From contig NZ_CP012622.1 of assembly GCF_001281045.1 (NCBI RefSeq), forward strand, positions 558,001-622,000: 64,000 nucleotides of DNA. The letters run 5' to 3'. Within the stretch, counting starts at the first letter, position 1; every line of letters begins with the position of its first letter. A model generated the notes under the pieces. The model saw nothing but the letters and a program-made list of their open reading frames with translations. It did no database searches and had not been told where the DNA came from. The translations under genes were made by a program, and so were the position numbers. This DNA is from Spiroplasma cantharicola (GTDB lineage Bacteria > Bacillota_I > Bacilli_A > Mycoplasmatales > Mycoplasmataceae). Positions 32,008-35,835 of this stretch are shown here, piece after piece.

Positions 32008-32757
32008 ATGAATAAATTTAAATGAAAAAATCCGTTGCATATTTGTATCTTATTAGTTTTATCTTTTTGTATTATTTTTAATTTTTCAACACCAAAAATT
32101 AACTATGAAGTAAATAAAGTTAATACAAAAGAAAAAGTTATTATGATAACTTTTGATGATGGACCAAGTTTAGCAGATGAAACTATTTTAGATATTTTAA
32201 AAGAAAACAATGCAAAAGCTACTTTTTTTGGAACAGGTATTAATTATGAAAAATATTGAAAAGATGAAAAAGTAAAAGCAATTACTGACAGAATGGTTAA
32301 TGAGGGTCACACTTTAGGAAATCATTCATATTATCACAATAAGTATCAATTTAAGACAAAGTCTGCTTATGATGAGTTTTATAAAACAAGTGACATGATA
32401 GTTAAAATTTATGCAGAAAATAATATACCTAAAACAATAAGTGATGTCCCAATAAGAATGCCATTCTTGCAATATTATCGAGGGATGGATTATTTACAAA
32501 GTAAAATGCAAGTTGAATATTTTGTAAGAGGTTACTTAGGTTGTGATTATGATGAAGCAATCTGTGGAAAAGAAAAAATTTTAAAACAGTATAAAAGTAA
32601 TATAAGACCAGGTCAAATATTAGTTTGTCATACAAGAGATTATGCAAAAGAATGACTTCCTGATCTTTTAAAACATTTAAATGAAAAAAATTATAAAACG
32701 GTTAATTTCACCAATGGTGATCAAGACTATAGAAATTATGGGGGATTAATATTCTAA
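32008..32757 (+). CDS. Polysaccharide deacetylase (NodB-like, carbohydrate esterase 4)
   Basis: A 249-residue protein with an N-terminal membrane anchor or signal (LHICILLVLSFCIIFNF, residues 10-27) and an extracellular NodB domain. VIMITFDDGPS (about residues 45-55) carries the catalytic/metal Asp pair, and LGNHSYYHNKY (about 104-114) carries the two metal His. The later R-x-P motif reads IRMPF and RPGQILVCHTRD holds the final His. Family members deacetylate GlcNAc polymers. In a wall-less cell the substrate cannot be own peptidoglycan; a host glycan or capsule is inferred. Three TGA are Trp. Confidence 0.88.
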
Positions 32758-33044
32758 TGTGATCAGCTATTGAAATTATTCAATTTATTACTTTAAATAT
32801 TATTTCAATTTTCTTTATTTATTTTGCAGTTATTAATTCTATTAATAAAGAAGAAAAGAAATGACTTAGAATTGTACATATAGTTATCGGGGGATTAAAC
32901 TCTATTTGAATTATTTTAATTTATACTTTAAACTTTTTTATTTGAAAATCATCTTGAGGTGTCAATGTTGGTGTAAACTTTGGTTTTATTATTTTAGATA
33001 TATTATATTTATCAATGTGATTCATTTTAAAATTAAAAAAATAA
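32757..33044 (+). CDS. Small membrane protein with three helices
   Basis: A 95-residue protein whose ATG overlaps the stop of the deacetylase gene (TAATG), so the two are coupled. Three hydrophobic segments at about residues 5-28, 42-62 and 70-90. Residues 2, 37 and several others are TGA-encoded Trp, so it is unseen in the standard code. No family recognised; a helper to the deacetylase is possible but unproven. Confidence 0.65.
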
Positions 33045-33189: not shown

Positions 33190-35835
33190 ATGAGAAAAAT
33201 TTTTAAACCTTTAGCAATCATTATATTAATTATCGGACTTATCTTTTTAACATTTATGTATGCATTACCAAAGGGCAAAGATAAGAAAGTACAAGAGCAA
33301 AATTTTGTTATGAATCATGGTAATAAGGACTGACATTGAATTGAAAATTGAGAACAATATAATAAAGATCATAAAAATTTTGAAATTTATTCAAATAATA
33401 CTGACATTGCACATGTTACTGAAAAAGTAATTCATGATGATGGAAAATTTGAATTAAATGCAAATAGTGTTGGTCAAACTTTTCTAACTTTAGTAGGATC
33501 AACAAAAAATTCAAATTTAGAAAAAAAATGAATATTTCCAACTGAAATTTATGAATCAGTAGAGCCTGAAAAAATTAATATTGAGATATCAAATAATAAT
33601 TCAAGTATTGAAACTGGTAATACTGATTCTTCAATAGTAATTAAAAATTATTTAAGTTTAAGTAATCTTAGTATAGAGTCTACAAATAAAAATATTGCAA
33701 CAGTATTTAATGATAATGAAATTATTCATATATCTGCAATTGCAGAAGGTGAAACAAAAATAATCGTTAATGCTGATAACGCTATTAATCCTGTTGAAAT
33801 AAATGTTATAGTAAATAAAAAACTATTTGATATTGAATTATCAAATGATAATATCAATCTCCAAACTGAGGAAATTAATTCTTCAATTAGTATCAAAAAT
33901 TATAAAAGTTTAATGAATGTAAGTGTTAAATCTAAAAATAATAATGTAGTACAAGTAACAAATGAAAATGAAATTATTAAAGTAACAGCACTTGCAGAAG
34001 GTGAAACAAAAATAATTGTTAACGCTGATAACGCAAAAAGTCCTATTGAAATAAATGTTATAGTAAATAAAAAATTATTCGATATTGAATTATCAAATAA
34101 TAAAATTAGTATTGAAAATGGTCAGACTAACTCTTCAATTATTATTAAAAATTATAAAAATTTAGAGAATGTTAATGTTGATATAAAAAATTCAAAAATA
34201 GCTTCAGTTATTAATGAAGGAGAAGTTGTTAAAGTAACAGCGCTTGCAGAAGGTGAAACAAAAATAATTGTTAACGCTGATAACGCAAAAAATCCTGTTG
34301 AAATAAATGTTACAGTTACAAAAAAATTATTTATTATTGAATTATCAAACAATAATATTAGTATTGAAAATGGTCAAGCTAGTTCATCAATAAAAATAAA
34401 AAATTATGAAAGTTTAAATAATGTTAGTGTGGAATCTAAAAATATTAATGTGGCACAAGTAACAAATGAAAATGAAGTTATTAAAGTAACAGCGCTTGCA
34501 GAAGGTGAAACAAAAATAATTGTTAACGCTGATAATGCAAAAAATCCTGTTGAAATAAATGTTATAGTTACAAAAAAATTATTTAATATTGAATTATCAA
34601 ACAATAATATAAGTGTTGAAGCAGAAAAAACTGATTCAACTATATCAATAAAAAATTTTGAGGATTTAAATAATGTTTCTTTCAAAATAACTAATGAAAA
34701 AAATATTAACGTTACAAATGAAAATGAAATTATTAAAGTAACAGGACTTGTAGAAGGTGAAACAAAAATAATTGTTAATGCTGATAATGCAATTACTCCT
34801 GTTGAAATAAATGTTATAGTTACAAAAAAATTATTTAACATTGAATTATCAAATAAAGAAATTAGTATTGAAGCTGGTCAATCTGATTCAATAACAATAG
34901 AAAACTATAATAGCTTAAAAAATATTAATATAGAATCTAAAAATTCAAAAATTGCCTTAGTAATTAATGAATCAAATAATATAAAAATATCTGCAATTGC
35001 AGAAGGTGAAACAAAAATAATTGTTAACGCTGATAATGCAATTACTCCTGTTGAAATAAATGTTATAGTTACAAAAAAATTATTTAACATTGAATTATCA
35101 AATGATAATATTACTTTGGAAAGTGGTCAAACTAATTCATCAATAAGAATAAATAATTATGATAGTTTAGTTAATGTAGGTATTAAATCTAAAAATAATA
35201 ATGTCGCAGAAATAAAAAATGAAAATGGAATTATAAAAATATCTGCACTTGCAGAAGGTGAAACAAAAATAATTGTTAACGCTGATAATGCAAAAAATCC
35301 TGTTGAAATAAATGTTATAGTTACAAAAAAATTATTTAACATTGAATTATCAAACAATAATATAAGTATTGAAGCAGAACAAAATGATTTAATAACAATA
35401 GAAAACTTTGAAAATTTAATTAATGTAAGTATTAAATCAAATAATGAAGATATTATTGGAGTAGTTCATGAAAATGAGAAAATTAAAATTGAAGGACTTG
35501 TAGAAGGTGAAACAAAAATAATTGTTAACGCTGATAATGCAAAAAATCCTGTTGAAATAAATGTTACAATTACAAAAAAATTAATTGATATCAAAGTTAA
35601 TAAAACTAAAGTTAAAATTAGAGTAGGAAGTGCATTGACAAAAATAAAAATATTAAACTATGAGGATTTAGAAAATCCAGAAGTTAAAAATAGTTCTTCA
35701 GGTTTAATTACAGTATCTGTTAAGGAAGATACAATTTCAATTAAGGCACTTCTTATAGGAGATGCAACTATTACAGTTAATGCTGATAATGCCAGAGAAA
35801 TTGTTAAAATAGAAGTAAAAGCAAGATTGATTTAA
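33190..35835 (+). CDS. Large surface protein with nine Ig-like (Big_2-like) repeats
   Basis: An 881-residue protein with an N-terminal hydrophobic anchor (residues 7-28, no lipobox Cys) and an outward-facing repeat region. Residues 30-126 are unique and contain several TGA Trp. From about residue 127 to the end are nine units of 83-84 residues. Each has a K-LF-IELSNNNISIE strand, an Asn-rich middle, and a very constant AEGETKIIVNADNA-P-EINV segment, matching the bacterial Ig-like group 2 pattern. The last unit is more diverged and ends the protein. GAGGGG precedes the ATG. Adhesin or surface-coat role is inferred. Confidence 0.82.
33568..35835 (+). repeat. Nine in-frame tandem DNA repeats of about 252 bp
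   Basis: The motif GAAGGTGAAACAAAAATAAT recurs at 33745, 33997, 34249, 34501, 34753, 35002, 35254 and 35503, a period of 252 or 249 bases. The stretch encoding the constant half of each unit is nearly identical in DNA, while the other half varies. Such repeats can gain or lose units by recombination. Confidence 0.9.

What the first reader, a model, noticed from the sequence alone, without database searches (positions are those of the whole stretch)
33190..35835. Nine-unit Ig-like repeat protein likely to vary in length
The period is 252 or 249 bases and half of each unit is almost identical in DNA, so unequal recombination should change copy number. Such proteins are adhesins or phage/host-contact factors.
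Basis: partly seen in the sequence, partly recalled or inferred. Interest (0 to 1): 0.6.

Follow-up and report, generated by a model that had tools for sequence, protein, structure and literature searches.

The report
Fixed-length Ig-like stalk surface protein
A wall-less, Spiroplasma-like bacterium carries a probable membrane-anchored rod of nine immunoglobulin-like units; the repeats exchange sequence and change fast, but the count is nine in all four related species that have the gene, so it looks like a fixed-length stalk and not one that varies in length.

Summary
Window 33190-35835 is one 881-aa ORF under genetic code 4: a hydrophobic N-terminus, a cap, then nine units of 84 or 83 aa. 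The units match Pfam Big_2 (E 2.6e-21) and the model of three units is an Ig-like sandwich (mean pLDDT 88.8). The last 84 bp of units 2-8 are 94% identical in DNA.

The prediction of variable length is not borne out between species. Orthologues occur in G014, G016 and G007, and 4 of 4 have nine units. The three closest keep the same unit lengths in register (units 6, 8 and 9 short). The units do recombine: in G014 and G016, units 2-4 were homogenised separately in each species (9 species-specific sites shared by all three units) with the block still three units long. The stalk evolves fast (dN/dS about 0.3-0.8) between a conserved cap and a conserved terminal unit (0.04-0.19 and 0.07-0.33).

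Best reading: a membrane-anchored, outward-facing Ig stalk of fixed length presenting a conserved C-terminal unit. Contact with an arthropod host is inferred, not shown. No evidence ties it to phages. Strain-level copy number could not be tested. It is an ordinary kind of protein with an instructive mode of evolution.

The parts
33190..35835 (+). gene of the nine-unit Ig-like protein, 881 aa, code 4
33208..33267 (+). hydrophobic N-terminal segment (aa 7-26), probable uncleaved membrane anchor
   Evidence: read by eye; no transmembrane predictor was run
33286..33573 (+). conserved cap (aa 33-128), beta-rich, possibly a degenerate Ig domain
   Evidence: dN/dS 0.04-0.19; model pLDDT about 50-70; profile match to the units weak, probability 5%
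33574..33825 (+). Ig-like unit 1 (84 aa)
33826..34077 (+). Ig-like unit 2 (84 aa)
34078..34329 (+). Ig-like unit 3 (84 aa)
34330..34581 (+). Ig-like unit 4 (84 aa)
34582..34833 (+). Ig-like unit 5 (84 aa)
34834..35082 (+). Ig-like unit 6 (83 aa, one-residue gap kept in G014 and G016)
35083..35334 (+). Ig-like unit 7 (84 aa; shares 92 bp exactly with unit 4)
35335..35583 (+). Ig-like unit 8 (83 aa, one-residue gap kept in G014 and G016)
35584..35832 (+). terminal unit 9 (83 aa), divergent from the others and the best conserved unit between species; probable outer tip

Best explanation
The gene encodes a membrane-anchored surface stalk. Inferred: the N-terminal hydrophobic segment holds the protein in the single membrane of a wall-less cell with the rest outside. 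Shown by prediction: the units are Big_2 Ig-like sandwiches in tandem. Inferred: they form a rod that presents the conserved terminal unit 9 away from the membrane. Shown: units 2-8 evolve fast and exchange sequence with one another within a species. Shown: the number of units is nine in all four species found to have the gene. Inferred: the exchange is mostly gene conversion, or crossing-over followed by selection that restores nine, because the length of the stalk matters while its surface sequence is free or pressed to change. The likely job is contact with an arthropod host; no ligand is known.
For: Big_2 E 2.6e-21; Ig-like fold, mean pLDDT 88.8, with Z 10.9 to LigA of Leptospira and 12.7 to S-layer protein SbsC. 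G014 and G016 have 881 aa with all nine unit lengths equal in register and the same neighbours; G007 has 891 aa and nine units at another place. Front parts of units are more alike at the same position between species than at permuted positions (6 of 5040 permutations reach the observed value for G000-G014, 3 of 5040 for G000-G016). In the back part, codons for the same residue agree at 0.960 within G000 but 0.848 between G000 and G014 orthologues (difference 0.112, column-bootstrap interval 0.037-0.204). Units 2-4: 234-248 of 252 positions identical within G014 or G016, 229 of 252 between them, and 9 sites where all three units differ by species; the G016 units 2-4 form a supported clade (99/96). 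dN/dS for units 2-8 is 0.28-0.52 (G000 pairs) and 0.50-0.81 (G014-G016), against 0.04-0.19 in the cap, 0.07-0.33 in unit 9 and 0.12-0.21 in three neighbouring genes. RecA is present in 20 of 20 genomes of the genus, one of them with an in-frame TAA. There is no other Big_2 copy in the genome to act as donor.
Against: No expression, location or binding data. The anchor was judged by eye. One genome per species, so four genomes give few independent tests of the count, and G007 has lost positional correspondence (1481 of 5040 permutations reach the observed value), so its nine could be chance. In G000 none of the 72 uniform back positions is private to G000, so part of its uniformity could be slow change of an ancestral state. 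The AU test does not separate front from back sharply (G000 units 2-8 as one clade: front p 0.018, back p 0.072). The run-length test for conversion is modest: global P 0.028, 0.024, 0.117 and 0.019 for G000, G014, G016 and G007. The stalk's faster change may be relaxed constraint and not diversifying selection, as no dN/dS exceeds 1.
Confidence: 0.6

Rival explanations
1. A Periscope-type protein: recombination between near-identical units changes stalk length between strains and so tunes how far a tip projects.
For: Adjacent units in G014 and G016 share exact runs up to 131 and 141 bp at spacing 252, in frame, and neighbouring pairs among units 2-4 there are 93-96% identical in aa.
Against: In the window's gene 0 of 28 pairs among units 1-8 reach 80% aa identity (3 of 28 in G014 and in G016), the threshold that the Periscope survey used (PMC8201768, passages). 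The count is nine in 4 of 4 orthologues.
Confidence: 0.15
2. The units turn over by unequal crossing-over, with gains and losses, and selection brings the count back to nine. The stalk's length is then fixed by selection alone and the homogenisation is its by-product.
For: Homogenisation is strongest in the neighbouring units 2-4 of G014 and G016, as crossing-over between neighbours would give.
Against: Long exact matches also join non-neighbours with different units between them (4 and 7 in G000, 2 and 7 in G014, 92 bp each), and the one-residue gaps of units 6 and 8 stay in place in three species, which fits conversion better.
Confidence: 0.3
3. A structural or carbohydrate-binding coat protein of the envelope and not a host-contact stalk.
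For: Best structural neighbours include S-layer proteins SbsC, Sap and EA1 and a Big_2-CBM56 protein; next to the gene lies a polysaccharide deacetylase.
Against: Big_2 is used in many settings (recalled), so the fold says little of function. The deacetylase and its small membrane partner occur without this gene beside them in other species, and G007 has the Ig gene elsewhere.
Confidence: 0.2
4. A phage tail or prophage protein.
For: PHROGs matches to tail proteins, best 1.2e-14; such proteins often carry Ig-like domains (recalled).
Against: The neighbours are sugar-uptake, deacetylase, RpiR-type regulator and riboflavin-kinase genes; no match in 50,697 phage records; same synteny in three species.
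Confidence: 0.02

Closest known systems
Big_2 (PF02368) Ig-like arrays such as Leptospira LigA/LigB, and intimin/invasin-type adhesins
   Same: Tandem bacterial Ig-like domains; the model aligns with LigA (8gyr, Z 10.9), FdeC (4e9l, Z 9.2) and invasin (1cwv, Z 8.7).
   Different: Wall-less host, probable N-terminal membrane anchor, no known binding domain found, and the same count in four species.
Periscope Proteins (SasG, Rib, Sgo_0707; PMC8201768, passages)
   Same: Tandem folded domains as a stalk; recombination between repeats.
   Different: Unit identity below their 80% threshold in this gene and no length variation between species.
Spiroplasma citri ScARPs / sarpin repeats (PMC3485318, passages)
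   Same: Repeat-bearing surface protein of a spiroplasma; there shown to act in entry into insect cells.
   Different: Sarpin repeats are 39-42 aa and the transmembrane segment is C-terminal; here the units are 83-84 aa Big_2 and the probable anchor is N-terminal. Homology was not tested.
Phytoplasma variable membrane proteins such as VmpA (PMC4392738, passages)
   Same: Repeats on the surface of an insect-borne mollicute.
   Different: Signal peptide plus C-terminal transmembrane segment, against a probable N-terminal anchor here. Homology was not tested.

Membership tests
Big_2, bacterial Ig-like domain group 2 (PF02368) | score over Pfam's gathering cut-off | tested here: met
   75.8 bits against 22.8, six stretches pass
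Big_2, bacterial Ig-like domain group 2 (PF02368) | Ig-like beta sandwich | tested here: met
   three-unit model, mean pLDDT 88.8, the best of five models, two of which failed at 36 and 31; Ig-like chains fill the list. A prediction, not a solved structure.
[quoted passage not shown]
   83-84 aa
Periscope Proteins | repeat identity of at least 80% (threshold read in PMC8201768) | tested here: not met
   0 of 28 pairs of units 1-8 in this gene; 3 of 28 in G014 and in G016
Periscope Proteins | repeat number varies between strains | not testable with these tools
   one genome per species is held; between species the count is nine in 4 of 4
Fibrillar adhesins (PMC9210967, passages) | repetitive stalk of folded domains | tested here: met
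Fibrillar adhesins (PMC9210967, passages) | cell-surface anchor | tested here: inconclusive
   hydrophobic segment aa 7-26 read by eye; no localisation test
Fibrillar adhesins (PMC9210967, passages) | adhesive domain | tested here: inconclusive
   over their cut-offs Pfam finds only Big_2 and T2SS-T3SS_pil_N; unit 9 or a stalk unit could bind
ScARP / sarpin adhesins | repeats of 39-42 aa and C-terminal transmembrane segment | tested here: not met
   units of 83-84 aa and no hydrophobic C-terminus, by eye

The most novel reading that the evidence does not exclude
Stalk length and stalk sequence are decoupled: recombination between units goes on and rewrites their sequence, but selection holds the count at nine over a divergence down to 41% protein identity, so that the array acts as a molecular ruler of set reach on a wall-less cell, the reverse of a Periscope Protein.
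Probability: 0.25. Interest if true: 0.5.

Novelty: new member of a known kind. Interest (0 to 1): 0.3.

Why it matters
DNA-identical tandem units are often read as a sign of length variation. Here the units do recombine, but the count did not move between species, so repeat identity alone is a poor predictor. If the fixed count holds among isolates, the array gives a clean test of what sets stalk length on a cell without a wall.

Tried and rejected
Names for the genomes: two scans of genome contigs found no relative, so the organism is given only as Spiroplasma-like; that label is recalled from code 4, the gene make-up and the 1.18 Mb genome, and comes from no call. Plasmids: one distant match, in Aureibacter. 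Solved structures by sequence: nothing useful (best E 0.95). Link with the neighbouring deacetylase: rejected, since the deacetylase is in 14 of 20 genomes of the genus but a match to the Ig protein is in 8 of 20 and a full-length orthologue in 4 of 20, and in the six further deacetylase loci read no Ig gene is next to it within the 1.5 kb held on each side. Cap as a tenth Ig domain: left open; the alignment for that model forced the cap against the units. Promoter scan: 63 sites against 51.8 expected in shuffles, uninformative. Literature: searches for Spiroplasma with Ig-like or Big_2 terms and for Mycoplasma with Ig-like repeats and gene conversion (listings only) showed no paper on this protein; one search was a listing only.

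Rows left out of counts: the identity comparisons use units 2-8 and leave out units 1 and 9, except that the run-length test uses units 1-8; the trees use units 1-8 of three species and leave out G007 and unit 9. The 60-bp entries in the exact-repeat list are an artefact of overlapping slices; one search replaces that list.

Full report
What is there. Window 33190-35835 (+) reads as 881 aa only with TGA as tryptophan; the four TGA codons all lie in the N-terminal part. The genome is one contig of 1,179,577 bases and the protein has no second copy in it; all four Big_2 matches in the genome lie in this gene. The protein has a hydrophobic segment at aa 7-26 (by eye), a cap (aa 33-128) and nine units starting at aa 129, 213, 297, 381, 465, 549, 632, 716 and 799, of 84, 84, 84, 84, 84, 83, 84, 83 and 83 aa.

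Fold. Pfam Big_2 matches at E 2.6e-21 with six stretches. A model of units 4-6, made from an alignment of seven overlapping unit triples of this gene, has mean pLDDT 88.8 and pTM 0.57, so the domains are well predicted and their mutual angles are not (two of the five models failed). Structure comparison lists S-layer protein SbsC, phage lambda tube protein V, LigA, Big_2-CBM56, FdeC, intimin and invasin, that is, Ig-like domains in general. The cap is modelled only at pLDDT about 50-70 and its profile match to the units is weak.

Relatives. In the genus, 8 of 20 genomes have a match and four a full-length orthologue: the window's G000, G014 (70% identity, 71%), G016 (69%) and G007 (41%). In the family, 20 of 60 genomes have some match with the alignment, most of them partial; those read are other Ig-like proteins. 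G014 and G016 share the neighbours with the window: deacetylase, small membrane protein, RpiR-type regulator and the 90-aa gene. G007 carries the gene at another place.

Copy number. All four have nine units. In G000, G014 and G016 the unit lengths agree one by one, including the short units 6, 8 and 9. Fronts of units match best at the same position: for G000-G014 only 6, and for G000-G016 only 3, of 5040 permutations of units 2-8 do as well; with G007 position is lost, 1481 of 5040. So the simplest account is no net gain or loss since the three close species split, at dS of 0.59-0.85 in three neighbouring genes between G000 and the other two. For G007 the equal count is suggestive only.

Recombination between units. 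In G014 and G016, units 2-4 agree at 234-248 of 252 positions within each species but each at 229 of 252 between the species, and at nine sites all three units carry one base in G014 and another in G016. The G016 units 2-4 form a supported clade. That is concerted evolution after the split, in a block that is still three units long. In G000 the effect is in the back part: synonymous agreement 0.960 within the gene against 0.848 and 0.843 with the orthologues, while the front shows none (0.772 against 0.776 and 0.765). Against this, none of the 72 uniform back positions of G000 is private to it, the AU tests do not separate front and back strongly, and the run-length tests are modest. Exact matches of 92 bp also join non-neighbouring units (4 and 7 in G000; 2 and 7 in G014). 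RecA is found in 20 of 20 genomes. Gene conversion is the simplest account; crossing-over with selection for nine is the close rival.

Selection. Between G014 and G016, dN/dS is 0.81 in the front and 0.50 in the back of units 2-8, 0.04 in the cap, 0.33 in unit 9 and 0.18-0.21 in three neighbouring genes; between G000 and the other two it is about 0.52, 0.28, 0.14-0.19, 0.07-0.12 and 0.12-0.21. Unit 9 is also the unit best kept in G007, 44 of 83. A conserved base and tip with a fast stalk fits an outward rod. No value exceeds 1, so diversifying selection is not shown.

Comparison with the known. It is a Big_2 array by domain. It fails the 80% identity threshold of Periscope Proteins (0 of 28 pairs) and shows no length variation between species. 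It differs from sarpin repeats and from Vmps in repeat size or anchor place. An adhesive domain is not recognised. Host contact is inferred from the kind of protein and from the host-bound life of the group, which is recalled.

Limits. One genome per species; no strain data; no localisation or binding data; organism names not given by the tools.

Noticed in passing
32008-32757 and 32757-33044: A polysaccharide deacetylase and a small 95-aa membrane protein overlap by one base (stop/start). The deacetylase is found in 14 of 20 genomes of the genus, and the pair is seen in the six further deacetylase loci read, where the Ig gene is not beside it. A deacetylase in a wall-less cell needs a substrate, perhaps of the host.
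   Followed up: partly
L059 and L060 (G050, about 316-341 kb): A tandem array of paralogous large proteins with a hydrophobic N-terminus, a middle part matched by the Ig-like profile and C-terminal repeats; the one tested matches DUF285. It looks like an expanded family of stalk-and-tip surface proteins.
   Followed up: partly
L019:883-2580 (G011): A lipoprotein-like Big_2 protein whose last four units are almost identical in sequence: a much better candidate for real length variation than the window's gene.
   Followed up: no
L061:9703-12744 (G007): A 1013-aa lipoprotein-like gene lies right after the G007 orthologue; by eye it looked chitinase-like, but Pfam gave only a weak DUF6563 match below its cut-off.
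   Followed up: partly
G015:C1:353161-353937: The RecA match in G015 has one in-frame TAA, the only one among 20 genomes.
   Followed up: no
L021:385-5058 (G021): A very long protein, 1557 aa and still open at the locus end, with many Ig-like units and a hydrophobic N-terminus.
   Followed up: no
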